Positions 21,195 to 57,977 of a stretch of 64,000 nt of DNA are shown here, piece by piece. Numbering within the stretch: position 1 is the stretch's first letter; each line of letters starts with the position of its first letter. The translations under genes were made by a program, and so were the position numbers. Source of the stretch: an uncultured Kordiimonas sp. (GTDB lineage Bacteria; Pseudomonadota; Alphaproteobacteria; Sphingomonadales; Kordiimonadaceae); NCBI GenBank assembly GCA_947503625.1, contig CANNEK010000001.1, positions 862,152 through 926,151 of the forward strand, in the 5' to 3' direction. The notes beneath the pieces are model-generated. The model was not told the DNA's origin. It searched no databases and worked only from the letters and a program-made list of their open reading frames with translations.

Positions 21195-21218
21195 GTTATA
21201 TAGATATACTAATATAAC
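21195..21218. promoter_or_regulatory. 16-base AT-rich operator, double overlapping copy
   Basis: GTTATATAGATATACT (21195-21210) and, on the other strand, GTTATATTAGTATATC (21218-21203) overlap, so TGTTATAT and ATATAACA bracket the site. It lies between two divergent VOC operons. It is one of nine promoter-region copies of a motif near GTTATATCNATATNAC and a candidate target of the HutC-type regulator at 37955-38767. Confidence 0.6.
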
Positions 21219-21249
21219 ATTTAACCACGCCGAGTAAAGAAAAGCCGAC

Positions 21250-21723
21250 ATGGAAACATCTCTTGACGACCCACTTTTAAAGCGAACCACAATCCGGGTC
21301 AGAGACATGGATAAAGCCATCGCTTTTTACGAGGGCGTGCTGGGCATGAAGCAATATTACAATAATGAGGTATTGCTGGACCGCCATTTCCTGCCGGGCG
21401 AAAAACCGGGTGACAAGATCCATCTGGTGATTATGCAGGGCAAGGACCCGGTGATCGGCATGATTGGCTTGCTGAAATGGCTTGAGCCGCAGCAATCGCC
21501 GCCACCGGTTACCTATGATTTCGAGTTTGGCCAGCCTGTATTTGTCGTGCAGTGCCCCGACGCGAAAGCGCTGTATGAAAAAGCCAGGACCATGGGCTGC
21601 GAGATCCGGTCGGCGCTTAGCGAAACGGAGTACCCGGCTGCCGCTGGCGGCACGGTAAAGGTTCGATCCGTAGGGTTATTTGACCCCGACGGTCATTTCT
21701 TTGAATGCAATCAACGCCTGTAG
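21250..21723 (+). CDS. VOC-fold protein (rightward copy 1)
   Basis: The protein is 157 residues. The VOC pattern is LKRTTIRVRDMDKAIAFYEGVLGMKQYYNNEVLLDRHFLPG and RSVGLFDPDGHFFECNQRL, which keeps the final Glu. The first-ligand position is Thr (RTTIRVRD), so metal binding at that corner may be lost. It is a close paralogue of the next gene, with the same DPVIGMIGLL segment. It is the first of two genes expressed from the promoter carrying the double 16-base motif. Substrate unknown. Confidence 0.85.
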   Translation: METSLDDPLLKRTTIRVRDMDKAIAFYEGVLGMKQYYNNEVLLDRHFLPGEKPGDKIHLVIMQGKDPVIGMIGLLKWLEPQQSPPPVTYDFEFGQPVFVVQCPDAKALYEKARTMGCEIRSALSETEYPAAAGGTVKVRSVGLFDPDGHFFECNQRL

Positions 21724-21748
21724 GGCAAATCCATTAGGGAGCAAACGA

Positions 21749-22213
21749 ATGTCAGCAATGATCAAACGCACAACACTCAAAGTGCGCGACATGGAAAAAT
21801 CGGTCGCCTTTTATGAAGGGGTAATCGGCATGTCGAAATACTACGACAATGAAATCACCCTGTCGGGGGACCTGTTACCCGGTGGTGGCAAGGGTGATGT
21901 GACACGCCTCGTGATCATGAAAGGTGATGACCCGGTTATTGGCATGATCGGCCTTCTTGAATGGCTGGATCCCAAACCGGATGCGCCGGAAATCCCGTAC
22001 ACGTTTGATTTTGGCAACCCGGTATTTGTTGCTGCTGTAGACGATGCCGAAGATGCCTATGGCAAAGCCCAGGCTTTGGAATGTGTTATCAGAGCCCCTT
22101 TAAGTGAGGGTGAATACCCGGGCGCTGACGGCGGCATTGTAAAGGTCCGGTCCGTCGGTGTTTTTGACCCCGATGGCCATTTCTTTGAGCTGAACCAGCG
22201 CCTCGAAGGCTGA
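21749..22213 (+). CDS. VOC-fold protein (rightward copy 2)
   Basis: The protein is 154 residues from ATG 21749, which has a GGGAG ribosome site. An upstream in-frame ATG at 21680 lies inside the previous gene and is not used here. It shares IKRTTLKVRDMEKSVAFYEGVIGM, GDDPVIGMIGLLEWLDP and FDPDGHFFELNQRLEG with its neighbour, so the pair is a tandem duplication and could form a heterodimer, as VOC proteins often dimerise. It ends two bases before the convergent MFS gene. Confidence 0.86.
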   Translation: MSAMIKRTTLKVRDMEKSVAFYEGVIGMSKYYDNEITLSGDLLPGGGKGDVTRLVIMKGDDPVIGMIGLLEWLDPKPDAPEIPYTFDFGNPVFVAAVDDAEDAYGKAQALECVIRAPLSEGEYPGADGGIVKVRSVGVFDPDGHFFELNQRLEG

Positions 22214-22215
22214 CG

Positions 22216-23630: not shown

Positions 23631-23646
23631 GTTATATCGATATCAC
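23631..23646. promoter_or_regulatory. 16-base AT-rich operator copy
   Basis: GTTATATCGATATCAC is a near-perfect palindrome centred on CG; 14 of 16 bases equal its own reverse complement. It lies between the divergent MFS gene and the membrane protein gene. Confidence 0.65.
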
Positions 23647-24508: not shown

Positions 24509-24559
24509 GATCCAAAATCAGTACCTGCGCCATCACAACCGGAATCAATTGATCATATT

Positions 24560-24575
24560 GTTATATCAATATACT
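24560..24575. promoter_or_regulatory. 16-base AT-rich operator copy
   Basis: GTTATATCAATATACT lies 35 bases upstream of the DUF1838-like gene start and just upstream of its GGAGAG ribosome site. Confidence 0.62.
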
Positions 24576-24609: not shown

Positions 24610-25530
24610 ATGTTAGAGATAGTGAAATCAGGGCGAACAGCGCTGGCCAAAACCATGGCGGCAGCCCTTGTCGCCGGAACAGCGGCGACAGGCGCTATGG
24701 CTGTTGACCTATCAACACCAGAAGGGGCAATTGCTGCAAATCGCAAGATCCAGTGCTCGACCGAAGACAACAAACCAATTGTTTACACCTGGGAAGGCTC
24801 GGTCTTTTCCCGCCGGATGGGCGAAGCAGACCAGCGTATGTTTGGTACAGTCGGTATGAACATCCGCACATGTGTTGCAGTGGATGGTGGTAACAAAGGC
24901 ACGGGATACCGTTTGGTATCGAAAGAAATCCTGCTGTATCTGGACCCCAAAACCGGAGAGCCGATGGACAAGTGGAACAATCCATGGACCGGAACAGAAG
25001 TTGATGTGATCCATGTTGCAAACGACCCGGTAAACCAGCGCCCGAGTTTCCCTTACGATGAAGAGGGCAATCCAAGGGCACGCTGGTACGCTCGCAATCA
25101 GGGCGATAGCTGGTTTTTGACAGCCCCGATTCCACTTTTCTACCACAACGAACTTGGCGGCGAATATCAGGCCTATGTAGGCGGTGCCTACCACGCAACT
25201 GAACTCTTCAATTTCATGGGGGATCTGGAAAGCCTTACAAGCGACGATACAGACACCGCTGACGTCAAGGTTGGTTGGGTTCGCATCTCTGACTGGTTAC
25301 CGTGGATGGAGATGCAGGGTCGTGAAGGTATCATCTACATTCATGCTGCAGGTCAAAAAGTTGACAGTTACGACGATTTGCCGGATGTGATGAAGCGATA
25401 CATCGCTGAGAACGAACCGACATACACGACACCGCCTCCTGGTGATGATGACCGCCCGAACGAAACAAGCTGGACCTACTTCAAGAAGAAGGTTCCCGGC
25501 GGCAAACTGCCACGCGGCGGTCATAACTAG
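24610..25530 (+). CDS. Exported DUF1838-like protein
   Basis: The protein is 306 residues. Residues 1-33 are a signal peptide ending ATGAMAVD. The mature part matches my memory of the DUF1838 family: KPIVYTWEGSVFSRRMGE, FGTVGMNIRTCV, LVSKEILLYLDPKTGEPMDKWNNPWTG and VDVIHVANDPVNQRP, plus a Trp-rich region WVRISDWLPWMEMQGREG. The function of this family is not known to me. It heads an operon with the LeuC/LeuD-like hydro-lyase that starts 21 bases after it, so it may act on the substrate before uptake or bind it. Confidence 0.8.
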   Translation: MLEIVKSGRTALAKTMAAALVAGTAATGAMAVDLSTPEGAIAANRKIQCSTEDNKPIVYTWEGSVFSRRMGEADQRMFGTVGMNIRTCVAVDGGNKGTGYRLVSKEILLYLDPKTGEPMDKWNNPWTGTEVDVIHVANDPVNQRPSFPYDEEGNPRARWYARNQGDSWFLTAPIPLFYHNELGGEYQAYVGGAYHATELFNFMGDLESLTSDDTDTADVKVGWVRISDWLPWMEMQGREGIIYIHAAGQKVDSYDDLPDVMKRYIAENEPTYTTPPPGDDDRPNETSWTYFKKKVPGGKLPRGGHN

Positions 25531-25551
25531 AATTGGACACAATAGAAAACT

Positions 25552-27000
25552 ATGGCGAAAACACTGTTCGATAAATTATGGGATGCGCATGTTGTCACCG
25601 ACCTCGGAGGCAACAATGCCCTTCTCTATATCGACCGCGTGTTCATTCATGAACGCACAGGCAGTGTTGCCCTGAAAAGCTTGCAGGAAAGTGGGCGTAC
25701 CGTTCGCTTTCCTGCCAATGCGTTCGGTACGATGGATCATATTGTGGACACTGTACCTAACCGCAGCGACAAAACCATGATGCCCAGCGGAGAGGACTTT
25801 ATCACCGCCATGCGCGAAGGCTGCCACTGGGCGGGTATCAAGCTTTTTGATATCAATGACAAAGACCAGGGCATTGTTCATGTTATCTCGCCCGAGCAAG
25901 GTATCGTGTTACCCGGCTTGTCTCTCGTTTGCCCTGACAGTCACACTTGTTCGCAGGGCGCATTCGGCGCACTTGCCTGGGGTATAGGTTCTACCGAAGC
26001 CGAGCATGCGCTTGCCACATCAACACTGCGCGTGAACAAACCGAAGCAAATGCGCATCCGGATTGACGGCAAACTTCCTGAAGGCCTTTCTGCCAAAGAT
26101 GTCATTTTACACATCATTGGTCAGATTGGTGCGGGCGGCGCCAGTGGTCATGCCATTGAGTTTTGTGGACCGGTGGTGGACCAGATGGACATGGAAGCCC
26201 GCATGACCCTGTGCAACATGGGCGCAGAACTTTCTGCCTTTACAGCTGTAATTTCTCCCGACGCCAAAGCCATCGAATTTCTGAAAGGCCGGCCCTATGC
26301 ACCCAAAGGCAGGGAATGGGACAATGCGCTGCAGAAATGGCAGGCGCTACACAGCGACACAGCCGCAACTTTCGATAAAGACATTAGCCTTGATATAAGC
26401 GATTTAAGGGAAACTGTGACATGGGGCACGAGCCCGCAACACGCCATTGAGATAACCGCCAAGATTCCTTCGCCGAATATGGCGGGCAGCAGTGTCGATC
26501 GCGAATCTGTTACCAAGGCCCTTGATTACATCGGGCTCAAGCCTGGCATGCCAATCGCTGGTATTCCTGTCACTGGCGCATTTATCGGGTCTTGCACCAA
26601 CGGTCGCCTTTCTGATCTACGCCGCGCCGCAGCCGTCCTGAAAGGCAAAAAAGTAGCAGACAGTGTGAAGGCCATTTGTGTGCCTGGTTCAATGCTGGTG
26701 AAAGCCGCCGCAGAAAAAGAAGGTCTGGACAGGATATTTATTGAAGCAGGTTTCGAATGGCGGTTACCGGGTTGCTCCATGTGTTTTTACGCCGGAGGGG
26801 AAAGCTTCGGCCATATGGAGAGAGTTATATCAACCACCAATCGGAACTTCGAGAACCGGCAGGGGCCAAAAACACGCACGCACCTTGCCAGTCCGGCCAC
26901 CGTTGCGGCCTCTGCCATCGCGGGCAAGATATGCAGCTTCAAAGACATTGAAACAACCGCTTCTTCGCTCGAACCCGAACCCGTACCAATGGTGAATTAA
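25552..27000 (+). CDS. leuC: LeuC-like hydro-lyase large subunit (aconitase family)
   Basis: The protein is 482 residues, close to LeuC. It has TLFDKLWDAHVV, CPDSHTCSQGAFGALAWGIGSTEAEHALAT and the three [4Fe-4S] cysteines in FIGSCTNGRLSDLR and PGCSMCFYAGGESF. The last motif differs from the GCSMCLAMN of leucine-pathway enzymes, and no leuA or leuB is nearby. A catabolic role is therefore more likely: hydration or isomerisation of a substituted maleate or malate, comparable to dimethylmalate dehydratase or citraconate hydratase. The small subunit follows after three bases. The symbol is by homology only. Confidence 0.85.
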   Translation: MAKTLFDKLWDAHVVTDLGGNNALLYIDRVFIHERTGSVALKSLQESGRTVRFPANAFGTMDHIVDTVPNRSDKTMMPSGEDFITAMREGCHWAGIKLFDINDKDQGIVHVISPEQGIVLPGLSLVCPDSHTCSQGAFGALAWGIGSTEAEHALATSTLRVNKPKQMRIRIDGKLPEGLSAKDVILHIIGQIGAGGASGHAIEFCGPVVDQMDMEARMTLCNMGAELSAFTAVISPDAKAIEFLKGRPYAPKGREWDNALQKWQALHSDTAATFDKDISLDISDLRETVTWGTSPQHAIEITAKIPSPNMAGSSVDRESVTKALDYIGLKPGMPIAGIPVTGAFIGSCTNGRLSDLRRAAAVLKGKKVADSVKAICVPGSMLVKAAAEKEGLDRIFIEAGFEWRLPGCSMCFYAGGESFGHMERVISTTNRNFENRQGPKTRTHLASPATVAASAIAGKICSFKDIETTASSLEPEPVPMVN

Positions 27001-27003
27001 GCC

Positions 27004-27624
27004 ATGGAAAAATTCACCAAAATCACCGCTATCGCCGCGCCGGTTATGCGAACAAACATTGATACTGATATCATTATTCCCTCACGGGAAATGAAGCGTG
27101 TTTCCAAAAAAGGGTTATCAAATGGCCTGTTTGCGGGCTGGCGCTATAGCGATATTGACGCACGGACCCCAAACCCTGAATTCGTACTAAACAAGCCCGG
27201 TTACTTTGGTACTCAAATACTGATCGCAGGCGAGAACTTCGGTTGCGGTTCCTCCCGGGAACATGCGGTTTGGGCACTGGCAGAATATGGCATCAGAGCG
27301 ATCATCGCACCGTCCTTCAGTGCAATTTTCCAGAGCAACTGCATTCAGAATGGATTGTTACCGATCACCCTGTCCTCAGACGATGTTACGGGACTTGCCG
27401 ATCAGGCGAGCGGCGGGTCAGCGGGAGTGTTCTCGGTTGACCTTCTGGAAAACACCATTACTGATCCTGCATCCCGCATACACCCATTTAAAATCGGCAC
27501 AAACCAACGCCAGACATTGCTGGACGGTCTTGACCCGATAGACCGAACGCTGAAGATGAAATCGGAAATCGAGAGATTTGAACTCGCTCACTTCAATGAA
27601 AACAGCTGGGCGGACTTACGATAA
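27004..27624 (+). CDS. leuD: LeuD-like hydro-lyase small subunit
   Basis: The protein is 206 residues, standard for LeuD. It has RTNIDTDIIIPSREMKRVSKKGL, the substrate-loop and swivel signature ENFGCGSSREHAVWALAEYGIRAIIAPSFSAIFQSNCIQNGLLPI. It completes the active site of the large subunit encoded just upstream. It lies three bases after that gene and ends seven bases before a convergent YciI-like gene. As for the large subunit, the leucine pathway is doubtful because of context. Confidence 0.88.
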   Translation: MEKFTKITAIAAPVMRTNIDTDIIIPSREMKRVSKKGLSNGLFAGWRYSDIDARTPNPEFVLNKPGYFGTQILIAGENFGCGSSREHAVWALAEYGIRAIIAPSFSAIFQSNCIQNGLLPITLSSDDVTGLADQASGGSAGVFSVDLLENTITDPASRIHPFKIGTNQRQTLLDGLDPIDRTLKMKSEIERFELAHFNENSWADLR

Positions 27625-28010: not shown

Positions 28011-28958
28011 TCAGGCTGGCGCATATCCGTGGGGGTAGCCTTTGGGCAGACCGGCATCAGGCACAAACCCGTAAAGTGGCTCGCCGGGCAAAGCGCCTTC
28101 AACGATCTTGCGCACCTCAAGCAGCTTATCAAGGTCAATCCCTGTGGACAGGCCCATGCTATCCAGCATGTACACAAGGTCTTCCGTGACAATATTGCCA
28201 CTGGCACCGGGCGCAAACGGGCACCCACCAATTCCGCCGAGTGATGCATCAAGGGTGGTAATCCCGACATCAAGAGCTGCCATCACATTCGCAAGGCCGA
28301 CGCCTCGCGTGTTGTGAAGGTGCAGACCCGTAAGCTTGTCATCGCCGACGGCTGCTTTCACAGCCTTTGTCAGACGCCTGACCTGCCCCGGGTTGGCATA
28401 GCCCGTTGTGTCAGACAATCCTACTTCACTGCAGCCTCGGGCCATCAAAGCCTCGGCCAACTGGACAACTGTCCGTTCAGGGATTGGCCCTTCCAGCGTG
28501 CAGCCAAATGCGGTTGATAATCCACCTTCAAACACAGGCCTTTCATCCGCTGGCAGCGTATCGATCAACTCGACGATCCGGGACACCTCGTCCAGCATTT
28601 GCGCGTGTGTTCGGCGCACATTTTTTAAACTGTGCGTTTCACTAACCGACAGCGGAATAGTAATTTTATCAGCCCCGGCCCTGATGGCATTTTCGGCACC
28701 GCGAAAATTCGGCACGAGCACTGCAACCGTCAGGTTCGGTATTGTCTTGGCAAACGCAACCAGTTCTGCTGTGTCGGCTAGTTGCGGTAGAATTTTCGCT
28801 GGCACGAACGAACCAACCTCAATTTCCGGGACGCCAGCCTCCGCCTCGGCTTTCACCCACGCTTTTTTTGCATCAAGCGGCATGATTCTGTCTATACTCT
28901 GCAGACCATCACGCGGACCAACTTCGCTAATTTCAATATCGATCGACGGTTTACTCAC
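28011..28958 (-). CDS. HMG-CoA-lyase-like carbon-carbon lyase, second copy
   Basis: The protein is 315 residues from a GTG at 28958, chosen for the GGAG site nine bases upstream; an in-frame TTG at 28985 is the alternative. Active-site residues are intact: VGPRDGLQ, GLHLHNTRGVG and LGGIGGCPFAPGASGN. It is paralogous to the gene at 7268-8215. The divergent neighbour is a CoA-transferase, and a 16-base motif lies between them, so the pair can activate and then split a hydroxy acid delivered by the LeuCD-like hydro-lyase. Products would be acetyl- or propionyl-CoA and a keto acid, by analogy. Confidence 0.9.
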   Translation of the reverse strand: MSKPSIDIEISEVGPRDGLQSIDRIMPLDAKKAWVKAEAEAGVPEIEVGSFVPAKILPQLADTAELVAFAKTIPNLTVAVLVPNFRGAENAIRAGADKITIPLSVSETHSLKNVRRTHAQMLDEVSRIVELIDTLPADERPVFEGGLSTAFGCTLEGPIPERTVVQLAEALMARGCSEVGLSDTTGYANPGQVRRLTKAVKAAVGDDKLTGLHLHNTRGVGLANVMAALDVGITTLDASLGGIGGCPFAPGASGNIVTEDLVYMLDSMGLSTGIDLDKLLEVRKIVEGALPGEPLYGFVPDAGLPKGYPHGYAPA

Positions 28959-29044
28959 TGTGTTACTCCGGCCTTTTTCAGGCAATTACGGGGGCTTAGC
29001 AATGATGGCGCTACTGAATTTCCGGTTGAACCATCGTTTTAATT

Positions 29045-29060
29045 GCTCTATTGATATAAC
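29045..29060. promoter_or_regulatory. 16-base AT-rich operator copy (minus orientation)
   Basis: On the minus strand this reads GTTATATCAATAGAGC; its left nine bases match the site at 24560 exactly, and the right half is degraded. It lies between the divergent lyase and CoA-transferase genes. Confidence 0.52.
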
Positions 29061-29140: not shown

Positions 29141-30331
29141 ATGACGGACAACCAGCAACTGCCGCTAGCCGGCATCAAGGTTATCGAGTTCACACACATG
29201 GTGATGGGCCCGACTGTCGGCGTTATGCTCGGCGACCTTGGCGCAGATGTCATCAAAATCGAACCAACCAAGGGCGACAACACGCGGAGACTGGTTGGAT
29301 CCGGTTCCGGCTACTTCCCGATGTACAACCGGAACAAACGCAGTATCTGCCTCGATATGAAATCGGCCGAAGGCAAAGACATTGCCTACAAGCTGATTGC
29401 TGATGCAGATATCGTGATCGAAAATTTTCGGCCCGGGGCCATGCAGAAACTGGGATTTGACTATGATTCTCTGCGGAAAATTAATGAGCGCCTGATTTAC
29501 TGCTCCGAAAAGGGGTTCCTGAAAGGCCCTTATGAAGAGCGCACCGCGCTTGATGAAGTGGCGCAGATGATGGGCGGTCTTGCCTACATGACTGGCCCCC
29601 CCGGCAGACCGCTGCGCGCCGGTGCCAGCGTGATCGATGTTACAGGCGGGATGTTCGGCGTTATCGCCATACTGGCTGCTATTGAAGAGCGCCACAGAAC
29701 CGGCAAAGGCCAGTATGTCAAAAGCTCGCTCTATGAAACCACAGCTTATCTCGTCGGCCAGCATATGGCACAGTATGCAGTTACCGGCACCCCGGCGCAG
29801 CCAATGCCGGCCCGGATTTCTTCCTGGGCCATTTACGACGTGTTTGAAACCGCCGACGACGACAATGTTTTTGTCGGGGTTGTAAGTGACACACAGTGGG
29901 TCGCCTTTTGCGAAGCGTTTGGTTTACCCGAGATGGCCGACAATGCCGATTACGCTACCAACCCCGAAAGGGTAAAACGCCGTGATAGCCTGATGCCAAC
30001 GGTGCGGGCACTTTTCCGTCAGTTCACCAAAACAGAGTTGATGACAAAGCTGGAGACAACGGGCCTTCCATTCGCTCCCATTGCCAAACCTCAGGATTTG
30101 ATTGACGATCCCCACCTCAATGCAGAAGGCGGCCTCATTGAAGTGACGCTGGAAGATGGTCAAAAAGCGAAACTGCCCGCATTGCCGATCGAGATGAAAG
30201 GCCAGAGGCTCGCGTTGCGTTCGGACCTTCCACAAATAGGCGAACACACCAGTGATGTTCTGGCTGAACTGGGCTATGATGATGAGACAATAGCCGCAAT
30301 GGCCAACGAGGGCAAAATCCGGTTAGGTTGA
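29141..30331 (+). CDS. CaiB/BaiF family III CoA-transferase, second copy
   Basis: The protein is 396 residues with GIKVIEFTHMVMGPTVGVMLGDLGADVIKIEP, NKRSICLDMKSAEGK, ENFRPGAMQKLGFDYDSL and a catalytic-position Asp in GASVIDVTGGMFG. A GGGG ribosome site precedes ATG 29141. It transfers CoA to an organic acid. Together with the divergent lyase and the upstream LeuCD-like pair it forms a plausible hydrate-activate-cleave sequence. A frame of about 330 codons crossing this start on the same strand (28408-29403) is antisense to the lyase and is not a gene. Confidence 0.92.
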   Translation: MTDNQQLPLAGIKVIEFTHMVMGPTVGVMLGDLGADVIKIEPTKGDNTRRLVGSGSGYFPMYNRNKRSICLDMKSAEGKDIAYKLIADADIVIENFRPGAMQKLGFDYDSLRKINERLIYCSEKGFLKGPYEERTALDEVAQMMGGLAYMTGPPGRPLRAGASVIDVTGGMFGVIAILAAIEERHRTGKGQYVKSSLYETTAYLVGQHMAQYAVTGTPAQPMPARISSWAIYDVFETADDDNVFVGVVSDTQWVAFCEAFGLPEMADNADYATNPERVKRRDSLMPTVRALFRQFTKTELMTKLETTGLPFAPIAKPQDLIDDPHLNAEGGLIEVTLEDGQKAKLPALPIEMKGQRLALRSDLPQIGEHTSDVLAELGYDDETIAAMANEGKIRLG

Positions 30332-30624: not shown

Positions 30625-30628
30625 GCCT

Positions 30629-31775: not shown

Positions 31776-31791
31776 GTTATAGATATATAAC
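31776..31791. promoter_or_regulatory. 16-base AT-rich operator copy, best palindrome
   Basis: GTTATAGATATATAAC is palindromic except for one base pair. It lies between the divergent methyltransferase and MFS genes. Confidence 0.62.
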
Positions 31792-35119: not shown

Positions 35120-35245
35120 CCAACTTACTCTCGCCTTGCCACACCAAGAGGTTGCGCGACTTTAGATATATTTTCTGCAATTAACCTTCATTCTAGAATG
35201 GGGTTTGAACAATCATGGCAAGCATAGAGATTTAATTGACATAGT

Positions 35246-49290: not shown

Positions 49291-49306
49291 GATATATAGA
49301 TATGAC
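49291..49306. promoter_or_regulatory. 16-base AT-rich operator copy (minus orientation)
   Basis: On the minus strand this reads GTCATATCTATATATC. It lies between the divergent nitrilase-like and oxidoreductase genes and 20 bases before the start at 49326. Confidence 0.55.
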
Positions 49307-50426: not shown

Positions 50427-51557
50427 ATGAAGTATTTTAAGTCGGCTGGCAAATATGTCGGCTTGCCGCTGCTGTTATTGCTTGCAGGAGCTGTCGTTGG
50501 TGCGGCCATCATTATCGATACTGGCAAAACCTACAATGACGACGCCAACTGGTTTGATTCACCAAACGGTATTGATGAAGCAGAAATGGTCACGCTGGGC
50601 GGCGTTGAGCAATATGTTCGCATCCGTAGCCGCGACAAGGCAAACCCTGTAATGCTTGACCTGCATGGCGGCCCGGGCTGGCCCCAGACCGGCATGTCGT
50701 ACCGGAACCTGCGTCCGCTCACGGAATATTTCACCCTTGTGGAATGGGACCAGCGAGGTACTGTTCGGTCTCCGGTGGCCGATCCAGCGCTAAACCCCAC
50801 AAGCTACGACCGAATGGTCGATGATACGGTTGAGCTAATTGAGCACCTTCAACAGCAACTGAATGTCGAAAAGGTCACGCTCGTCGGTCATAGCTGGGGC
50901 GCCATGCTGGGCCTTGGTGTCGTCCAGAAGCGACCAGACATCATTTCAGCCTATGTCGGTGTTGGGCAGGCCCTGAGCTGGAAAGGCGGCTTTGACGAGT
51001 CACGCCGTTTGAACATCGAGGCTGCGGAACGCGCTGGCGATACTGCTACCGCCAACCGCTTGCGCGCCCTTACCGATACATGGCCGGGCAAAGATGATTT
51101 TGATGGCATCATGGGGCGCATCAGCACAATCCAGGAACCGCTCACGGACTTCGGCACGTCTCTGCATGCTTCAAAAAGCAACAGTTTCTTCACGTCGGAT
51201 ATTGCGCATGATCTGTTGTTCTCACCAGAGGTGTCCTTCATGCAGGCTATGGGACTGCTGAGCGGTGAAAGCCAGACCACAAAGCAGCTGTTTGCCGATC
51301 TGCATGACCGTGATCTTCGGCTTCAATTCGGAACACGATATCAGGTTCCCATGTTCCTGTTTCAGGGAGAGCACGACTGGCAAACACCAACAAGCTTTGT
51401 TCGTCCCTGGTTTGAGACGCTGGAAGCACCGCACAAAGAATATGTGAATTTCGAGCATTCTGCTCACATCGTCATCAACGAGCAACCCGGAAAATACCTG
51501 CATGAGATGATCACGCGGGTTCGTCCCTTCTCGCTCCTGCAAAGTGCCGCAAATTAA
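50427..51557 (+). CDS. Alpha/beta hydrolase, proline-iminopeptidase-like, membrane-anchored
   Basis: The protein is 376 residues from ATG 50427, with AGGTGGGG upstream. Residues 8-30 are one hydrophobic helix, either an uncleaved signal or anchor, so the enzyme faces the periplasm. HGGPGWPQ (oxyanion hole), VEWDQRGTVRS, and VTLVGHSWGAMLGLGVV with the nucleophile Ser are those of prolyl aminopeptidases (S33 family). A His in NFEHSAHIVINEQP fits the triad. Unlike the two GFHTG paralogues this one is catalytically complete. Its end overlaps the convergent flavoprotein gene by four bases. Confidence 0.88.
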   Translation: MKYFKSAGKYVGLPLLLLLAGAVVGAAIIIDTGKTYNDDANWFDSPNGIDEAEMVTLGGVEQYVRIRSRDKANPVMLDLHGGPGWPQTGMSYRNLRPLTEYFTLVEWDQRGTVRSPVADPALNPTSYDRMVDDTVELIEHLQQQLNVEKVTLVGHSWGAMLGLGVVQKRPDIISAYVGVGQALSWKGGFDESRRLNIEAAERAGDTATANRLRALTDTWPGKDDFDGIMGRISTIQEPLTDFGTSLHASKSNSFFTSDIAHDLLFSPEVSFMQAMGLLSGESQTTKQLFADLHDRDLRLQFGTRYQVPMFLFQGEHDWQTPTSFVRPWFETLEAPHKEYVNFEHSAHIVINEQPGKYLHEMITRVRPFSLLQSAAN

Positions 51558-53125
51558 ATCAGCCCCAACGCACCGGGGTTGATCTGCCCCGTCGGATCAA
51601 GCTGCTTTTTCAGTCCTTCAACCACAGCATAGCTGCCGGGTTCCAGCCCTTCACGGTACGGGTATGCCTTTCCTATCTGCATGTGAACAGCGCCTCGTTC
51701 CAGAAACAGCTTGTTCAGCGCTGCACGAACTTTCATCACAACAGCATTGCCTTCCGGGCGCCCGCCAAAGTCCTGAAAGTTCTTTTTCGCGCTGTCTTCC
51801 ACAACTTCTTCCTGAATTTCCATGCGTTCGTCAGGCCAGAAAAACACTGGCTCAAGCACACAAGTGCTGGTGCCGATGGTTGCGATCAGATAGCCGGTAT
51901 TAATGCCATGTGCGTCCATTTCTTCCCGATGATCAGCAAAACACTGCTCCACAGCCGCCATTGTTTCCGGGCCTTTCGAGTGTGGCACAAGCCCGTGAAC
52001 CGGTAACCAGCGCTCTCCCTCGGGGCCAACCATATTGTTGAGCGGGGTAAAAGGGTTGGCGCTGATGATTTTGGGAATGGAGTTTTCCAGTTTTTCGCCG
52101 CCCGCTTTCCGGCAAATCTCTTCAATTTGTGCCAGCGCATCGTCAGCACCGGCGGCACTGTGGGCCTCGGTGATAAAATGATAGCTATACTGTGCATCAT
52201 CCATAAACGAGCGGCCCGCGAGCGCCAGTTTGGCACCATCCTTAAGGGCCTTAAACGCACCACCAGATGACTTCATAACATTGGTAAGAGTTTTCACATC
52301 GCTGGCGAGGCTTTGGCGTTTCATCCGCTGGCTCTGCAAATAAGGGTCAAACCCGAAACTCTCTGTTGCAAGGCCACGGCGCGATACTTCGCTTGCCGCC
52401 CCGAACAAGGATGGATGGTCCTTGAAATTGAAGGATGCGAAGCGTTTGTGTGGCGGGTCCGTGATCAGCTTCAGTGTTACAGTGGCTTTCAGCCCCAACG
52501 AGCCGGCGTCCGCTGTAAACAGGCCTGTCAGGTCCGGCCCATAGTGCCGCATAAACGGGCTGGAATTCACCTGAGCGCCTGCACCGGTTTTCAAAATACT
52601 GCCATCCGCCAGCACAACCTCGAAACCAATAGCACTATCAGCCGCTGTACCGTGCACACCGGAACCGAAGAAGATACTGTTTTGGCTCATGCCACCGCCA
52701 ACGGTTGCCCGTATACCTGAGAGAGTTCCCCAAAAGGGCGGTCGCACGCCTGTATCTTTCAACTTTTCATGCATATCCACCCACTTACACCCGGCCTCAA
52801 CAGTAACGTACATGTCTGTCAGGTTCACTTCGAGGACACGGTTCATACGTGCCATATCCACGGTGATCGCTTTTGAGTTGGTCGGCAGATAACCACTAGT
52901 ATAACTCATGCCACCGCCACGAGGGAAAACCGAATACCCCGCTTCTACGGCGGCTTTTACAGCCGCGGCCAGCTCTTCCTTGTCGCCCGGCCGGATCACC
53001 GCGTTGGTAACAAAATCAGCGCGCTTGCTTACGTCCTGTGAGTAAAAACGCCGGTCTGCTTCATCAAGAAGCAAGTTATCAGGGCCAAGGATTTGGATCA
53101 GGCGATCCTGGAGAGAAGCGTCCAT
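51554..53125 (-). CDS. FAD-linked oxidase, GlcD/lactate-dehydrogenase-like
   Basis: The protein is 523 residues. The N-terminal FAD_binding_4 (PCMH) domain includes AVIRPGDKEELAAAVKAAVEAGYSVFPRGGGMSYTSGYLPTNSKAITVDMARMNRVLEV and GVRPPFWGTLSGIRATVGGGMSQNSIFFGSGVHGTAAD. The C-terminal half looks like the FAD-oxidase substrate domain ending GSYAVVEGLKKQLDPTGQINPGALGLI. Enzymes of this kind oxidise 2-hydroxy acids or vanillyl-type alcohols and pass electrons to quinones or cytochromes. It follows the TRAP transporter genes on the same strand after 13 bases, so it probably oxidises the imported acid. Confidence 0.9.
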   Translation of the reverse strand: MDASLQDRLIQILGPDNLLLDEADRRFYSQDVSKRADFVTNAVIRPGDKEELAAAVKAAVEAGYSVFPRGGGMSYTSGYLPTNSKAITVDMARMNRVLEVNLTDMYVTVEAGCKWVDMHEKLKDTGVRPPFWGTLSGIRATVGGGMSQNSIFFGSGVHGTAADSAIGFEVVLADGSILKTGAGAQVNSSPFMRHYGPDLTGLFTADAGSLGLKATVTLKLITDPPHKRFASFNFKDHPSLFGAASEVSRRGLATESFGFDPYLQSQRMKRQSLASDVKTLTNVMKSSGGAFKALKDGAKLALAGRSFMDDAQYSYHFITEAHSAAGADDALAQIEEICRKAGGEKLENSIPKIISANPFTPLNNMVGPEGERWLPVHGLVPHSKGPETMAAVEQCFADHREEMDAHGINTGYLIATIGTSTCVLEPVFFWPDERMEIQEEVVEDSAKKNFQDFGGRPEGNAVVMKVRAALNKLFLERGAVHMQIGKAYPYREGLEPGSYAVVEGLKKQLDPTGQINPGALGLI

Positions 53126-53138
53126 GAAAAGTTCCTAC

Positions 53139-54398
53139 TTATTTTACCAAAAACAATGATAGCGACGGCGTAAAAGTGACGATCAGCAAGCCGATAATCA
53201 TCAGAGCGAGAAACGGCAGGACCGATTTGGCGATCAGCCAGAAGTCTTCCCGGAAGGCCGTCATGGCAACAATCAGATTGAGGCCCAGCGGCGGCGTGAG
53301 ATAACCGATCTCGAGGTTCGTGATCATAATGACGCCGAAGTGCACAGGGTCCACACCCTGTGAAAGTGCCAAAGGCATCAAAAGCGGTGATATAATCAGG
53401 ATCGCGGAACCGATATCCATAAAACAGCCCACTGCCAGTAACAGTACCATCGTGATTAACAGGAATGAGACAGGATCAGAGACCAGTTCCGTCATCCAGC
53501 CCACAAGGGCAGTCGGGATTTGCTCGTAGGCCATAAATGTGTTGATCGAAAGTGCCATCATCAACAATGGAAACAGGCTACCCATCATGGTTGCTGTTTC
53601 AAGCGAAGTGTCTTTCAGTTCGGCAATCGTCATGTCGCGGTGGATAAACAGTTCCACCAGCACAGCGTAAAACACGGCCACGGCTGCGGACTCTGTTGCC
53701 GTGAACCAACCTGCGTAAATGCCGCCAAGAATCACAACTGGCATAAAGAGAGCGAAAATCCCGTTTTTCAGTGCGTTCCACAGCGCCCCGACATTGAACG
53801 GTGCACGCTCCTTCGACCAGTTTACTATCATGGAGTAGACGATGAAGATGGACGTCAGCAGTATCGCCGGACCTATACCCGCTTTAAACAGATCGGCAAT
53901 GGAAGTCTCCGTCATCACACCATAAAGAATGAGCGGGATAGAGGGCGGTACAATGATACCGAGCGTACCGGCAGCACACAGCGCACCAAGTGCGAACTTC
54001 TTGCTGTAGCCTGCATCAATCAATGCCGGGTACATCACAGAACCAACAGCAATCAGCGTTACGGTGCTGGAACCCGAAATAGCGGCAAAAAACGCGCACG
54101 AGAGTATAGTGGCAATCGCCAGCCCGCCCGGTATAGGGTTCATTGCTTCACGCATGATCGCAATCAGGCGTTTGGCGATAGATCCACGCGACATGATATT
54201 GCCAGCAAGAATAAACAGTGGAATTGACAGCAGCACTTCCTGATCAGCCGCCGCCCAGGCATCGAGAACGACATAGTCCAGCTTGCCGTCACCCCATGCG
54301 AGGTACGAAAAAGCCGCAGCAAACATCAGCATGATGACGATGCGCTGCCGCAGCACCAGCATCACGATTAGCGAGGAAGTTAGGGCAAGCGCACTCAT
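53139..54398 (-). CDS. TRAP transporter large permease (DctM type)
   Basis: The protein is 419 residues with about 12 membrane helices. DctM features are EVLLSIPLFILAGNIMSRGSIAKRLIAIMREAMNPIPGGLAIATILSCAFFAAISGSSTVTLIAVGSVMYPALIDAGYSKKFALGALCAAGTLGIIVPPSIPLILYG and EIGYLTPPLGLNLIVAM. It is the ion-coupled permease of a tripartite system for carboxylic acids. Its ATGA start overlaps the small-subunit stop by four bases. Confidence 0.94.
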   Translation of the reverse strand: MSALALTSSLIVMLVLRQRIVIMLMFAAAFSYLAWGDGKLDYVVLDAWAAADQEVLLSIPLFILAGNIMSRGSIAKRLIAIMREAMNPIPGGLAIATILSCAFFAAISGSSTVTLIAVGSVMYPALIDAGYSKKFALGALCAAGTLGIIVPPSIPLILYGVMTETSIADLFKAGIGPAILLTSIFIVYSMIVNWSKERAPFNVGALWNALKNGIFALFMPVVILGGIYAGWFTATESAAVAVFYAVLVELFIHRDMTIAELKDTSLETATMMGSLFPLLMMALSINTFMAYEQIPTALVGWMTELVSDPVSFLLITMVLLLAVGCFMDIGSAILIISPLLMPLALSQGVDPVHFGVIMITNLEIGYLTPPLGLNLIVAMTAFREDFWLIAKSVLPFLALMIIGLLIVTFTPSLSLFLVK

Positions 54399-54952
54399 AA
54401 CTTGCCTCCTGTACCTTTAATCTCGGCCTGCAGATCCGCTGGCACGCTGTCAAGGCTCGCGGCATCCTCGAGCTGAGGTCGCAGTTCAGGTATCAGCCCA
54501 AAGATGCTGTGCCGAATGGCGGCAACAAAGAACACCAGCGGGATCAACGCCTGCATGGGCCAGACGGGAATACGCAACATCCGCGTGGCTTCACCCAGTT
54601 CATACGTCTCCATCACAACGCCAACACCAACAATGGCAAACGCTAGACAGAAGGCTGCCGTCAGAAGTTCTTGTATCCGTGTGATGGCGGTATCCCAATG
54701 ATCAGGCAACCAATTGTCGGCAAATTTGGGGCGCAGGTGTCGACGCGCATCAGACGCAAGGCCAAAGCTTACAAACGCTGTGGCTATCATGGCAAACACG
54801 CCGATGCGCGGCGCGCCTGCGATACCAACACCGGTCAGCTTACGGCTGAAAACATCGGCGATGATGATCAGTGTCATGACGGCAAATGCCATCAAAGTGA
54901 TAGCGCGCTCGGTTTTTGATACGACGGCCAGAAACTTCTTTGCAATTTCCAT
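54395..54952 (-). CDS. TRAP transporter small permease (DctQ type)
   Basis: The protein is 185 residues with four membrane helices, standard for DctQ. ERAITLMAFAVMTLIIIADVFSRKLTG and FVSFGLASDARRHLRPKFADNWLP are characteristic. The C-terminal tail is hydrophilic. Its ATG shares a base with the stop of the binding-protein gene, and its stop overlaps the DctM start, so P-Q-M are co-translated. Confidence 0.92.
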   Translation of the reverse strand: MEIAKKFLAVVSKTERAITLMAFAVMTLIIIADVFSRKLTGVGIAGAPRIGVFAMIATAFVSFGLASDARRHLRPKFADNWLPDHWDTAITRIQELLTAAFCLAFAIVGVGVVMETYELGEATRMLRIPVWPMQALIPLVFFVAAIRHSIFGLIPELRPQLEDAASLDSVPADLQAEIKGTGGKL

Positions 54953-56034
54953 CAGTCTGCCCCCCCGATCGGCGCTGCCGGTGCATCGAATTCGCCAGCC
55001 GCCAAACGGGCACGATAGTCGGCACGGCCTTTCAGCATTGCCTGATAAATCATTGCAGACTGCCCACCAACCCGCTCCACAATGCGTGCCGCATTATCTT
55101 TTGTTGCATCAACCCAAAGAGCGCGATCTTCATCACCCAGGGTATGGATGCTCACGGCAGGATCGGCGTCAACTTTTTTACCCAAAGACTCTGTCATCGC
55201 CCGCACACCTGCGCGCGCAGCTGCAGAGCTCGGGAAGGCGTTTTCGATCAACTCCTGATCTGTCGGGCTCAGGCTGTTGAACCACTTGTAATTCATCACA
55301 ACAACACCGGTATCGTATGAATGGCGCGTCAGTGTCAGATGAGACGCTTCTTTGTCCAGACCGGTGATTGCGTAGAGCAGCATGTTGGTTTCACCCCCAT
55401 CTACAAGGCCTGTCTGCAATGACGGGATCAGGTCGGGAAATGGCATCTGGATCATGTCACCACCAATAGATTGCATCAGAACCTGCGACGCCTCTGACGC
55501 CTGCGATCTCAAGGCATAGCCCTCTGCGTCTATTGGCCGAAGGATCGGCGTCTTGCCGAAAAAATTCATCCAGCCAACATCGACCCAACGGACAAGAATA
55601 AGGTTCCGTTCTGCAAACAGCGGCTGGAATACATCCAGAAGATGTTCGTCCATCACATAATCAAGTTCTGTGCGATCCTTGAAAAAGAAAGGCGTCAGCA
55701 AAACCGAGAGTTCAGGGACAATTGCAGAAGCGCCGCCAATAGTGAAGCCGCCAAACTGAATGCGGTTGCGGCGGATGTTGCTCATGGTGACCGGCTCTCC
55801 GCCGGTTTCACCCCTGATCAGGAGCTTGATAGCAACCTCGCCATTGGATCGACCTTCGGCGTTGCGCCTGAATATCTGCCAATCATTATCCCACGGCGAA
55901 CCCGGCGCGGCGAAAGCCCCCACCGTTACCGTCAACCTTGGCTCCGGCGTTTCCTGAGCCACAAGCGTTGTAGCTGATACCGCCCCGAAAAACGCCAACC
56001 AGACTGCCGACTTTATTACTCTCAACACTTTCAT
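54952..56034 (-). CDS. TRAP transporter substrate-binding protein (DctP type)
   Basis: The protein is 360 residues from ATG 56034. In-frame ATG codons also occur at 56046 and 56076; GAGGGG sits very close to 56034, so the exact start is uncertain. It has a signal peptide ending TLVAQE, FAAPGSPWDNDWQIFRRNAEGRSNGEVAIKLLIRGETGGEP, FGGFTIGGASAIVPELSVLLTPFFFKDRTELDYVMD, and the conserved Arg in AEGYALRSQASEASQ that binds a substrate carboxylate. It catches an organic acid in the periplasm. It is closest in layout to TRAP-DctP family proteins and leads the P-Q-M set. Confidence 0.9.
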   Translation of the reverse strand: MKVLRVIKSAVWLAFFGAVSATTLVAQETPEPRLTVTVGAFAAPGSPWDNDWQIFRRNAEGRSNGEVAIKLLIRGETGGEPVTMSNIRRNRIQFGGFTIGGASAIVPELSVLLTPFFFKDRTELDYVMDEHLLDVFQPLFAERNLILVRWVDVGWMNFFGKTPILRPIDAEGYALRSQASEASQVLMQSIGGDMIQMPFPDLIPSLQTGLVDGGETNMLLYAITGLDKEASHLTLTRHSYDTGVVVMNYKWFNSLSPTDQELIENAFPSSAAARAGVRAMTESLGKKVDADPAVSIHTLGDEDRALWVDATKDNAARIVERVGGQSAMIYQAMLKGRADYRARLAAGEFDAPAAPIGGAD

Positions 56035-56065
56035 CCCCTCAGAGCACATCTGTAGACCGTAAAGC

Positions 56066-56953
56066 CTACTGCACAATCTTCATGGTTACCAAATGATCAT
56101 ACTCGGTCGGCCATCGATAGTCCGGCGCACCGTCCAGGAACTTTGCAGCATGGTCTTTTGATGTCACAGCATCAATCATGCTCCAGCCCGTGGGCCCGGC
56201 AAGCTCGGCAAACTCCGCGGGCTCGAAGCCTGAAACAATTGGCTCGCCGCGAGCGCGGGTATAGTCCATTAACCGCTGAAGATCAGCGGCAGTTTCCGGA
56301 ATAGTGGCCAGAAATTCAGGCTTAAACAGGCGACCGTCCATAAAATCTGCGACGAGCATGCTGTCTGACGCCGCGATGCCTGCCAGCCCTTCCAGCGACC
56401 GAACAATTGTCTCCCGGTCCAGATAGATCAGCACACCCTGCCAGCTGAAAAAAACTGGCTTCGCCGGATCAAAACCCGCTTCCAGCAGGCGATCTTCTAC
56501 CTTTTGTTCCGCGAAGTTAACCGCAACATACTGGTGATCAACTGTAACCTTCTTTCCGCAGGACGCCATTCTGGCGCGCTTGGCAGCCTGACTTTCCGGC
56601 GTGTCCACCTCAAAAACAGTCACGCCTGCAAAACGGGCGTCTGCCCGCAAGGCAAAGGTATCAAAACCGGCCCCTAGCAAAACATACTGGCTGACACCTG
56701 CCTTAACCGCATCAACGAGCCGGTTTTCACAGTACCGGGCACGGGAAAGCACACTGAGCGAGGACTTCAAATGCCTGAACATGCCCTGCCTCATGAAATA
56801 GTTGCGCAGTAAACCATTGCTGCACTTCAGGCGGAACATCAGACCAAGCATCCGGCTTGCGTAAGGGTCATCAAAAAGCTTGGCTTCAGGGCCATAGTGG
56901 TAGGCTGCACGCACCGCCGCCACCATTTCCGCTGTTTTGCTTGCCTGTCGCAT
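56066..56953 (-). CDS. SAM-dependent methyltransferase, LCMT/TIGR00027-like
   Basis: The protein is 295 residues. It has SRARYCENRLVDAVKAGVSQYVLLGAGFDTFALRAD (motif I with a preceding R-x-R-x-x-x-x-D), FEVDTPESQAAKRARMA (acidic SAM-binding residues) and FFSWQGVLIYLDRETIVRSLEGL. This is the leucine-carboxyl-methyltransferase-like group that methylates small-molecule or C-terminal carboxylates. It precedes the TRAP genes on the same strand and follows the VOC gene after ten bases, so it belongs to the operon under the motif at 57962. Confidence 0.87.
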   Translation of the reverse strand: MRQASKTAEMVAAVRAAYHYGPEAKLFDDPYASRMLGLMFRLKCSNGLLRNYFMRQGMFRHLKSSLSVLSRARYCENRLVDAVKAGVSQYVLLGAGFDTFALRADARFAGVTVFEVDTPESQAAKRARMASCGKKVTVDHQYVAVNFAEQKVEDRLLEAGFDPAKPVFFSWQGVLIYLDRETIVRSLEGLAGIAASDSMLVADFMDGRLFKPEFLATIPETAADLQRLMDYTRARGEPIVSGFEPAEFAELAGPTGWSMIDAVTSKDHAAKFLDGAPDYRWPTEYDHLVTMKIVQ

Positions 56954-56963
56954 CCGATTTGCC

Positions 56964-57875
56964 TCAACCGATCTCGATGAGCTCGATCAGCTCTCCCGCA
57001 GCGCCAATACAACTGGCCGTGCGCCTGCCGTCATACATGGCACCGCTTTGATGACGCGGCGGTGTTATAAACTCGACATTGATCTCATCAAGTGACTGAA
57101 CCATATAGCTTACAACAGCAATACCGGGAGGAAGCATGCCTTCTGCTTTCTTGCGCTCGATAGTGCCGTTTGGATACTGGTCAATTTCATTGTTGACCAA
57201 GCGACCGACCCCTGTGGTGGTGATATCGGTTTTATGGTCTGTACCAAGCCCAAATGCATTGTTAATCACGGTGTAGGTAAGGTTGTAGCTGTCACCTTCT
57301 CGCCAGCCGAATGTGGTCGTATAAAATTCAATAGCCTTTTCGCGGTCAGGTGTGGCCAGCACCATGATAAAAATATGGTCCACCGGCGCAGCTGCCTTCG
57401 GCAGGTCTTCATTGGGCATATTGCCACGCACTTCGTTCAGGAACAGTACTTCATTCGCAGGCCCGATCGCCTGCATCGGAATAAAAATGTTGGAAATCTC
57501 CAGCTCAACCGGCGGGCCAATCACCTCGAACGGTGATGCTTCCAGTTTTGCGTACAAGGCATAAACATCTTCCACGCATATTTCCATAGCGTTCCAGCCA
57601 TACGTACGAAGCGGCGTATAGGCTGGCATATCAGGATTTTCAACAATACGAACGTACACCGGTGTAGCGCTCGACGATCCCATAACAAAATAGGGCTGAC
57701 CAGCCATACCGGGTGCGCCCCATCCTGCCGCCATGTCATCTGGAACCGTATTTTCTTCAACGACAGACCAACCGAAATACTCGCTATAGGTTTCGGCAAG
57801 CCTGGCAGCATCAGGTGCACTTACCGTCGCGGCCTTGATCAGCCCCTCAGTATCGAAAGAAGATGTATTTGTCAT
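56964..57875 (-). CDS. Two-domain VOC-fold protein
   Basis: The protein is 303 residues without a signal peptide. Two VOC modules are seen: KAATVSAPDAARLAETYSEYFGWSVVEENT (N-terminal) and DHIFIMVLATPDREKAIEFYTTTFGWREGDSYN (C-terminal), ending with CIGAAGELIELIEIG, which keeps a terminal Glu. It is the sixth VOC gene of the window and is first in the VOC-methyltransferase-TRAP-flavoprotein operon. Its promoter region, shared with the amine-oxidase gene, contains the 16-base motif. Extradiol cleavage, isomerisation and hydrolysis are all known for this fold. Confidence 0.84.
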   Translation of the reverse strand: MTNTSSFDTEGLIKAATVSAPDAARLAETYSEYFGWSVVEENTVPDDMAAGWGAPGMAGQPYFVMGSSSATPVYVRIVENPDMPAYTPLRTYGWNAMEICVEDVYALYAKLEASPFEVIGPPVELEISNIFIPMQAIGPANEVLFLNEVRGNMPNEDLPKAAAPVDHIFIMVLATPDREKAIEFYTTTFGWREGDSYNLTYTVINNAFGLGTDHKTDITTTGVGRLVNNEIDQYPNGTIERKKAEGMLPPGIAVVSYMVQSLDEINVEFITPPRHQSGAMYDGRRTASCIGAAGELIELIEIG

Positions 57876-57961
57876 CGGATCCCACTATCCCAGATTTATC
57901 CTGATCGTGGCGAAAAACGCGCTGAAACAACAATGACGTATGTCAATATTTCACAACAAAT

Positions 57962-57977
57962 GTTATAGATGTATATC
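57962..57977. promoter_or_regulatory. 16-base AT-rich operator copy
   Basis: GTTATAGATGTATATC agrees with the site at 31776-31791 at 13 of 16 bases. It lies between the divergent VOC and amine-oxidase genes and is the rightmost copy seen. Confidence 0.52.

What the first reader, a model, noticed from the sequence alone, without database searches (positions are those of the whole stretch)
21195..57977. A 16-base motif at nine promoter regions defines a 37-kb HutC-type regulon
GTTATATCNATATNAC-like palindromes occur at 21195 (double), 23631, 24560, 29045, 31776, 35246, 38903, 49291 and 57962. Each is between divergent genes or just before an operon, and one lies before the HutC-type GntR gene (37955-38767). 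HutC proteins are known to bind short AT-rich palindromes and to autoregulate. I infer that one regulator controls uptake (TonB, MFS, TRAP), VOC enzymes, CoA-transferase and lyase, and oxidoreductases as a single undescribed catabolic system.
Basis: partly seen in the sequence, partly recalled or inferred. Interest (0 to 1): 0.85.

Follow-up and report, generated by a model that had tools for sequence, protein, structure and literature searches.

The report
HutC-type regulator's nine-operator catabolic regulon
In a marine Kordiimonas-like bacterium, one gene switch of the HutC type appears to sit on nine matching DNA sites inside a 37-kb cluster of nutrient-breakdown genes, and many distant relatives of the switch carry the same site in front of their own gene, which makes this an untested but well-supported control circuit for a probably undescribed breakdown pathway.

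Summary
The motif is real. All nine reported sites exist; one is misregistered (38903; best at 38895). By my gene table all nine are intergenic, seven between divergent genes. Seven of nine are much better conserved than their flanks among Kordiimonas relatives. The HutC assignment holds: it is the only UTRA protein found in the genome, and in loci not used for training 39 of 56 orthologues (43-57% identity) have the site within 350 bp upstream, against 16 of 5,600 shuffles. The operator is a 16-bp palindrome, GWTATAWYRWTATAWC, often with a third 8-bp unit; none of the nine has the usual HutC GT-N4-AC core. At two promoters it fills the spacer between -35-like and -10-like hexamers, which suggests repression. 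Neighbouring genes suggest the chemistry: a cyclic imide or amide is opened, deamidated to a branched maleate, hydrated by a LeuCD-type enzyme and cleaved by a lyase. Two lyase types (34 and 13 of 80 loci) never co-occur within the flanks searched. Binding, inducer and substrate are untested; chlorophyll- or haem-derived maleimides are a speculative candidate.

The parts
37955..38767 (-). HutC-type (GntR wHTH + UTRA) regulator, proposed autorepressor; 270 aa
   Evidence: Pfam GntR 2.1e-18 and UTRA 4.9e-33; only UTRA match in the genome; orthologues
   Evidence: 20.1 bits; 88% identical to relatives against 38% for the rest of the intergenic region, 5 rows; a promoter-like pair on the minus strand (TTGCCA-N18-AACAAT, 38929-38900) overlaps it
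21195..21218 (.). 24-bp triple-unit operator between divergent VOC genes
   Evidence: 17.1 and 20.0 bits; 94% vs 70%, 3 rows
23631..23646 (.). operator between divergent MFS gene (22216-23580, -) and gene of unknown family (23728-24459, +; start chosen by me)
   Evidence: 19.0 bits; 92% vs 70%, 4 rows
24552..24575 (.). 24-bp triple-unit operator before DUF1838-leuC-leuD-like operon; covers the 17-bp spacer of TTGATC-N17-TACTAT and overlaps both hexamers
   Evidence: 18.0 and 18.5 bits; 93% vs 54%, 4 rows; promoter read by eye
29045..29060 (.). operator between divergent HMG-CoA-lyase-like and CoA-transferase III genes
   Evidence: 16.9 bits; 95% vs 55%, 5 rows
31776..31791 (.). operator between divergent methyltransferase and MFS_2 transporter genes
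   Evidence: 18.2 bits; 100% vs 48%, 4 rows
35238..35261 (.). 24-bp triple-unit operator before TonB-dependent receptor; covers the 17-bp spacer of TTGACA-N17-TACAAA
   Evidence: 17.2 and 14.3 bits; 98% vs 37%, 5 rows; promoter read by eye
49291..49306 (.). operator between divergent carbon-nitrogen hydrolase and zinc-type oxidoreductase genes
   Evidence: 19.4 bits; letters no better conserved than flanks (77% vs 72%), but matrix score 17.2-20.8 bits in 4 of 4 rows
57962..57977 (.). operator between divergent VOC-LCM-TRAP operon and amine-oxidase-like gene
   Evidence: 14.4 bits; 56% vs 54%; site kept in 2 of 3 relatives aligned, absent in G070; G052, not in that alignment, has a 17.2-bit site beside its VOC gene
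24610..27624 (+). DUF1838, LeuC-like and LeuD-like hydratase subunits
28011..28985 (-). HMG-CoA-lyase-like enzyme, proposed acyl-CoA lyase
29141..30331 (+). CoA-transferase family III
35271..37784 (+). TonB-dependent outer-membrane receptor (true start probably further downstream)
39330..43753 (+). aldehyde dehydrogenase, unknown gene, amidohydrolase (Amidohydro_2) and second CoA-transferase III, downstream of the hutC/DUF1330 operator
48154..49212 (-). carbon-nitrogen hydrolase
51554..57875 (-). FAD_binding_4 oxidoreductase, TRAP transporter (DctM, DctQ, DctP), LCM methyltransferase and VOC enzyme

Best explanation
The 16-bp palindromes are operators of the HutC-type protein at 37955-38767, which represses its own gene and eight other promoter regions in a 37-kb catabolic cluster. 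A dimer would bind GWTATAWYRWTATAWC; a third 8-bp unit at three promoters would allow extra contacts. At the TonB and DUF1838 promoters the site covers the spacer between the -35-like and -10-like hexamers, so binding should exclude RNA polymerase; a pathway intermediate bound by the UTRA domain would lift repression. The chemistry that the clade's neighbourhoods point to is cyclic imide or amide opening, deamidation to a branched maleate-type diacid, hydration by a LeuCD-type enzyme, and cleavage either directly (PEP-mutase/isocitrate-lyase family) or after CoA transfer (CoA-transferase III + HMG-CoA-lyase-like). Shown by computation: sites, their conservation, the link to HutC orthologues, gene content. 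Inferred: binding, repression, inducer, every reaction and the substrate. The confidence given is for HutC being the regulator; I put the generic imide/amide route at about 0.45.
For: 39 of 56 loci outside the training set carry a site of 12 bits or more within 350 bp upstream of hutC; site density there is 151-fold that in the rest of the same loci; 16 of 5,600 shuffled upstream regions have one. Footprints: 88-100% identity inside versus 37-70% outside for seven of nine operators. One UTRA protein in the genome. HutC, the deacetylase-family gene (90% or more) and DUF1838 occur in the same 5 of 19 genus genomes. TTGACA-N17-TACAAA around the TonB operator in 4 of 5 genomes, TACAAG in the fifth; TTGATC/TTGATT-N17-TACTAT/TATTAT at DUF1838 in 4 of 4 (read by eye). 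Lyase modules: 34 and 13 of 80 loci, 0 with both. The isochorismatase keeps Asp, Lys and Cys aligned with its solved relatives (that these are the catalytic residues is recalled), and in 5 of 29 loci a site lies 55-255 bp before its first aligned codon.
Against: 17 of 56 outside loci have no site at the threshold, among them three Bordetella loci. Of nine weaker homologues in the order, two (35% and 37%) have strong upstream sites and seven do not, including two at 38%; identity alone does not predict the site. G014 has a site before its amidase operon but no HutC match at E 1e-20; its assembly has 800 contigs and 6% contamination. None of the nine operators has the published HutC core GT-N4-AC. 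The promoter scan of 20900-39400 found no excess of sigma-70-like sites over shuffles (15 against 15.8) and did not list the two spacer promoters, though two listed pairs overlap the operators at 21195 and 38895. No site precedes the isochorismatase-deacetylase operon here or in the four Kordiimonas relatives. At 49291 and 57962 the letters are no better conserved than the flanks, and the latter site is absent in G070. No binding or expression data exist.
Confidence: 0.87

Rival explanations
1. The motif is the operator of another regulator of the cluster, for example the CRP/FNR-type protein at 45326-46048, and HutC is itself only a target.
For: A CRP-type homologue accompanies HutC in 18 of 80 named loci and is 95% identical in three Kordiimonas relatives, 71% in a fourth.
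Against: In the outside loci (56 used, 39 with the upstream site) the listing shows no homologue of this CRP-type gene (tblastn E 1e-15, half the length, flanks up to 10 kb). No matrix hit of 10 bits lies before the CRP-type gene.
Confidence: 0.05
2. HutC binds these sites but as an activator, or as an activator at some and a repressor at others.
For: Several sites lie 50-130 bp from start codons, where activation is possible. The promoter scan gives no clear promoter at most of those it covered.
Against: At the TonB and DUF1838 promoters the operator lies between the hexamers in all Kordiimonas genomes aligned. NagR of this subfamily blocks transcription (start of abstract of PMC4333415); that most others do is recalled.
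Confidence: 0.08
3. The regulon is real but the pathway is something other than imide or cyclic-amide catabolism, for example a terpene-like or aromatic route in which the LeuCD, CoA-transferase and lyase genes act on other branched hydroxy-diacids.
For: Kordiimonas carries many other enzymes under the same sites: VOC, oxidoreductases, amidohydrolase, methyltransferases. The amidase operon has no site of its own here.
Against: The amidase-deacetylase triad is complete in 26 of 29 loci found by its central gene and has a HutC-type site before it in five of them. Hydantoinase A/B stands in its place near many divergent HutC orthologues.
Confidence: 0.4
4. The motif is a by-product of AT-rich intergenic DNA and promoter hexamers.
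For: The half-sites resemble TATA-like sequence, and the reversed pattern is more frequent genome-wide (105 against 46 places).
Against: 23 matches against 2.07 in shuffles; 10 of 46 genome places in 0.9% of the genome; sites in upstream regions of up to 71% GC; 39 of 56 outside loci against 16 of 5,600 shuffles.
Confidence: 0.01

Closest known systems
HutC subfamily of GntR regulators (NagR/YvoA, DasR, PhnF, TreR, HutC)
   Same: GntR winged helix plus UTRA domain; NagR/YvoA and DasR among the nearest solved structures; sites between divergent genes; extra half-boxes 7-12 nt from the site centre are reported for GntR-family sites (PMC4494728, section 17 read)
   Different: Published HutC consensus is NyGTMTAKACNy with GT and AC 4 nt apart in most (PMC4494728, passages); here no operator has GT-N4-AC and the palindrome is GW-TATA-N4-TATA-WC
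Unusual HutC-subfamily operators such as FarR, NagQ and SdhR
   Same: Also depart from the consensus; SdhR is listed with a palindrome of additional symmetry (PMC4494728, passages)
   Different: Different sequences; none in the passages I saw has the 8-bp-unit palindrome found here
Dimethylmaleate hydratase / dimethylmalate lyase module of nicotinate fermentation (recalled; not tested as homologues)
   Same: LeuD/DmdB-family small subunit (TIGR02087) and a lyase whose solved relatives include 2,3-dimethylmalate lyase occur near HutC orthologues
   Different: Best solved relatives of that lyase are 2-methylisocitrate lyases; here joined to amidase, deacetylase or hydantoinase genes and a HutC regulator; Kordiimonas has a CoA-transferase and HMG-CoA-lyase-like pair instead
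Cyclic imide hydrolase plus amidase of fungal nicotinate breakdown (HxnM, HxnN)
   Same: Imide ring opening by an enzyme said to be related to PuuE-type proteins, then amide hydrolysis (PMC9304392, passages)
   Different: Here two tandem PuuE-type proteins and an isochorismatase-family amidase, with LeuCD-type genes nearby

Membership tests
HutC subfamily of GntR regulators | N-terminal GntR winged helix-turn-helix | tested here: met
   Pfam GntR E 2.1e-18
HutC subfamily of GntR regulators | C-terminal UTRA (chorismate-lyase-like) domain | tested here: met
   UTRA E 4.9e-33
HutC subfamily of GntR regulators | operators matching NyGTMTAKACNy (GT-N4-AC); usual but not required, exceptions are published | tested here: not met
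   0 of 9 operators contain GT-N4-AC
HutC subfamily of GntR regulators | autoregulation | tested here: inconclusive
   operator upstream of hutC here and in 39 of 56 outside loci; action on the gene not tested
HutC subfamily of GntR regulators | binds a small-molecule inducer | not testable with these tools
   needs the protein
Histidine-utilization repressor HutC (TIGR02018) | score above the curated cut-off | tested here: not met
   113 bits against a cut-off of 220
Cyclic imide catabolic pathway | isochorismatase-family amidase with catalytic residues | tested here: met
   Asp42, Lys137 and Cys170 align with Asp, Lys and Cys of 4l07; their catalytic role is recalled, substrate unknown
Cyclic imide catabolic pathway | imidase activity of the deacetylase-family pair | not testable with these tools
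   PuuE-like by sequence, both far below the allantoinase cut-off
Cyclic imide catabolic pathway | regulation of these genes by the same operator | tested here: inconclusive
   no site in this genome or four Kordiimonas relatives; site before the operon in 5 of 29 loci

The most novel reading that the evidence does not exclude
This HutC clade is the sensor of an undescribed, widespread (mainly alphaproteobacterial, often marine) pathway that feeds on alkyl-substituted maleimides and related pyrrolinones, such as the oxidation products of chlorophyll, haem and bilins. The ring-opening module (PuuE-type pair or hydantoinase A/B) and the lyase module (PEP-mutase type or CoA-transferase plus HMG-CoA-lyase type) would be interchangeable around an aconitase-family alkylmaleate hydratase.
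Probability: 0.17. Interest if true: 0.85.

Novelty: new variant of a known kind. Interest (0 to 1): 0.6.

Why it matters
It gives an uncharacterised regulator clade a concrete operator, so binding and induction can be tested directly with short DNA fragments. The operator departs from the published HutC consensus, which bears on how GntR-type winged helices choose DNA. The operator also serves as a tag for finding pathway genes: it ties cyclic-amide opening enzymes to aconitase-family hydratases and two alternative lyases in many lineages, pointing to a catabolic route that none of the papers listed by my searches appeared to describe (capped lists). If the substrates are tetrapyrrole-derived maleimides, it would help explain what bacteria do with chlorophyll and haem residues.

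Tried and rejected
A distant genomic match (G000:C1:100571, 15.0 bits, before a TIR-TPR gene) looked like a further target, but the upstream regions of the orthologue in four relatives have no comparable site (best 6.3 bits); treated as chance. The match at 39168 lies inside DUF1330 and scores 8.1 bits; dropped. The whole-genus pattern scan listed places for only two of 19 genomes, so I could not test clustering in genomes without HutC. The consensus promoter scan gave no excess over shuffles and covered only 20900-39400. I considered CRP-type binding and put it low: the outside HutC loci carry the site without that gene. I considered ureide catabolism because of the PuuE similarity; both deacetylase-family proteins score far below the allantoinase cut-off (124 and 133 bits against 424.6).

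Ten paper searches were made. I saw listings and starts of abstracts only, and most lists were capped (for example 15 of 66, 12 of 5,627; one search found 0). None of the listed papers appeared to describe this regulon or route. Passages were read of PMC4494728 (plus outline and section 17), PMC4333415, PMC9304392 and PMC7318184.

Rows dropped or doubtful: two of my window proteins (YCII27630, PTGR49302) were set in the wrong frame and contained stops because of my coordinates; their identities are not used, though PTGR49302's position delimits one intergenic region (the start is nearer 49326). Flanks of relatives end at tblastn alignment ends, not true starts. L110 (too little upstream DNA) was skipped. 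The outside set is L103-L161 without L126 and L152; L082-L102, L126 and L152 (59% identity or more) were left out because most come from genomes used for the matrix. The 80 loci are the best of 421. Clusters that looked like antisense ORFs were not followed.
Full report
What was claimed. The finding describes GTTATATCNATATNAC-like palindromes at nine promoter regions between 21195 and 57977 and infers that a HutC-type GntR regulator controls the genes as one catabolic system.

The observation. Aligning the sites gave a symmetric matrix whose consensus is GWTATAWYRWTATAWC: strong G at position 1, TATA at 3-6, loose centre, TATA at 11-14, C at 16. At 10 bits it finds 13 hits in the window (0.7 expected) and 142 in all 24 regions scanned (24.0 expected; one region, G003, has none), but it was refined on these same regions. 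With up to 3 mismatches to the perfect palindrome there are 12 places, 7 in the window, one of them the coding match at 39168. The patterns read backwards give 12 and 105 places genome-wide, so it is the concentration in this cluster, not the genome total, that is notable. Register corrections: 38903 becomes 38895-38910; 24560 and 35246 are the right-hand parts of 24-bp triple units at 24552-24575 and 35238-35261, like 21195-21218. By my gene table all nine regions are intergenic, seven between divergent genes.

Conservation in close relatives. The window's genome is Kordiimonas-like, judged by the titles of its nearest named relatives. Four genomes of the same genus carry HutC at 83-94% identity with much of the cluster around it. 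In alignments of the nine intergenic regions (3 to 5 rows each, this genome included), seven sites are 88-100% identical while the rest of the region is 37-70% identical. The sites at 49291 and 57962 drift in letters (77% against 72%, 56% against 54%); the first keeps its matrix score in all 4 rows, the second is absent in G070. The regulator occurs in 5 of 19 genus genomes; the deacetylase-family gene at 90% or more and DUF1838 occur in the same five, and G085 has a 37% homologue of the former. The amidohydrolase is at 89% or more in four of the five, with a 49% homologue elsewhere in the fifth and 35-36% homologues in three others.

The regulator. The protein at 37955-38767 has a GntR winged helix and a UTRA domain; YvoA/NagR and DasR are among its nearest solved relatives. 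It is not the histidine-utilization HutC by curated score (113 against 220 bits). It is the only UTRA match in the genome. A scan of named genomes with an alignment of 18 orthologues found 421 relatives and kept the best 80. I set aside L082-L102, L126 and L152 (59% identity or more, most from genomes used for the matrix). Of the remaining 57 one had too little upstream DNA; of 56 loci with orthologues of 43-57% identity, 39 have a site of 12 bits or more within 350 bp upstream, against 16 of 5,600 shuffled regions, and site density there is 151 times that in the rest of the same loci. Seventeen have none at that threshold, including three Bordetella loci. Among nine weaker homologues from the order (30-44%), two (35% and 37%) have strong upstream sites and seven have none; of these seven, the two at 42% and 44% have a site just after hutC, before the next genes, and two at 38% have no upstream site. 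The site thus goes with this group of regulators, but not strictly by identity.

Operator form. None of the nine operators has GT-N4-AC, the core published for most HutC-subfamily sites (PMC4494728, passages). The unit GATATATC is itself palindromic and recurs at 8-bp steps, which makes the 24-bp triples. Extra half-boxes 7-12 nt from the site centre are described for the GntR family in the same paper (section 17), so the triple looks like an extended case of a known feature.

How it probably acts. Read by eye, the TonB promoter has TTGACA-N17-TACAAA in four of five genomes (TACAAG in the fifth), and the DUF1838 promoter has TTGATC or TTGATT, 17 bases, then TACTAT or TATTAT in all four aligned, with the operator covering the spacer. 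This fits exclusion of RNA polymerase. The consensus scan of 20900-39400 does not list these two promoters and finds no excess over shuffles (15 against 15.8); two of its listed pairs overlap the operators at 21195 and 38895. The promoter reading is therefore an inference.

What the genes do. Under or beside the sites lie LeuC/LeuD-like hydratase subunits, a CoA-transferase III, an HMG-CoA-lyase-like enzyme, TonB, MFS and TRAP uptake systems, VOC enzymes and oxidoreductases. At 15790-18342 lies an operon of an isochorismatase-family amidase and two PuuE-type proteins; the triad is complete in 26 of 29 loci found through its central gene. The amidase aligns best with 4l07, with Asp, Lys and Cys conserved; I recall that entry as a maleamate amidase and these residues as the catalytic ones. 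No site precedes this operon here or in the four Kordiimonas relatives, but one lies 55-255 bp before its first aligned codon in 5 of the 29 loci. Four of those five genomes have a HutC match; G014 has none at E 1e-20, in a fragmented assembly.

Modules across lineages. In the 80 named loci, with flanks of at most 10 kb, hydantoinase A or B homologues occur in 34, PuuE-type proteins in 11, both in 1; a PEP-mutase/isocitrate-lyase type protein in 34, an HMG-CoA-lyase-like protein of 60% or more in 13, both in 0. Twenty-four loci show none in that tally, in which a lone HMG-CoA-lyase-like gene does not count; in many the contig or flank ends. Together with LeuC/HacA- and LeuD/DmdB-type subunits this suggests ring opening of a cyclic imide or amide, deamidation, hydration of a branched maleate and cleavage of the resulting malate. 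The PEP-mutase-type protein is closest to 2-methylisocitrate lyases, with 2,3-dimethylmalate lyase among its relatives. Methyl-, methylethyl- and methylvinylmaleimide and haematinic acid are named among chlorophyll or haem degradation products in PMC7318184; that study found haematinic acid in leaves but could not detect the maleimides, which it cites from others (passages). They are candidates, nothing more.

Known or new. The regulator is a HutC-subfamily protein by domains, with an operator that departs from the usual one. None of the papers listed by the searches named in Tried and rejected appeared to describe this regulon or route; the lists were capped and the library lacks most subscription papers, so this is weak evidence of novelty.

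Verdict. Binding, inducer and chemistry remain to be tested.

Noticed in passing
15790-18342: Isochorismatase-family amidase followed by two tandem PuuE-type (polysaccharide deacetylase family) proteins; the triad is complete in 26 of 29 loci of the order found by its central gene.
   Followed up: partly
G000:C1:950380-952145 (beyond the window): Two further DUF1838 genes about 24 kb past the window end; such second and third copies (41-45% identity) occur in the same five genus genomes that have HutC.
   Followed up: no
45326-46048: CRP/FNR-type regulator that accompanies HutC in 18 of 80 named loci; its role is unknown.
   Followed up: partly
L112:10793-20735: In a distant alphaproteobacterium, branched-chain-type ABC transporter genes, an aconitase-family subunit, a PEP-mutase-type lyase and the amidase triad follow HutC in one direction.
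   Followed up: partly
62127-63791: impB/mucB/samB-family (Y-family polymerase-like) protein next to the cluster.
   Followed up: no
60579-60594: A weak motif match (10.3 bits) inside the coding region 60320-61153; probably chance.
   Followed up: no
G014 (L170): A 19.3-bit site 55 bp before the amidase operon in a genome where no HutC match was found at E 1e-20; missing sequence or another regulator.
   Followed up: no
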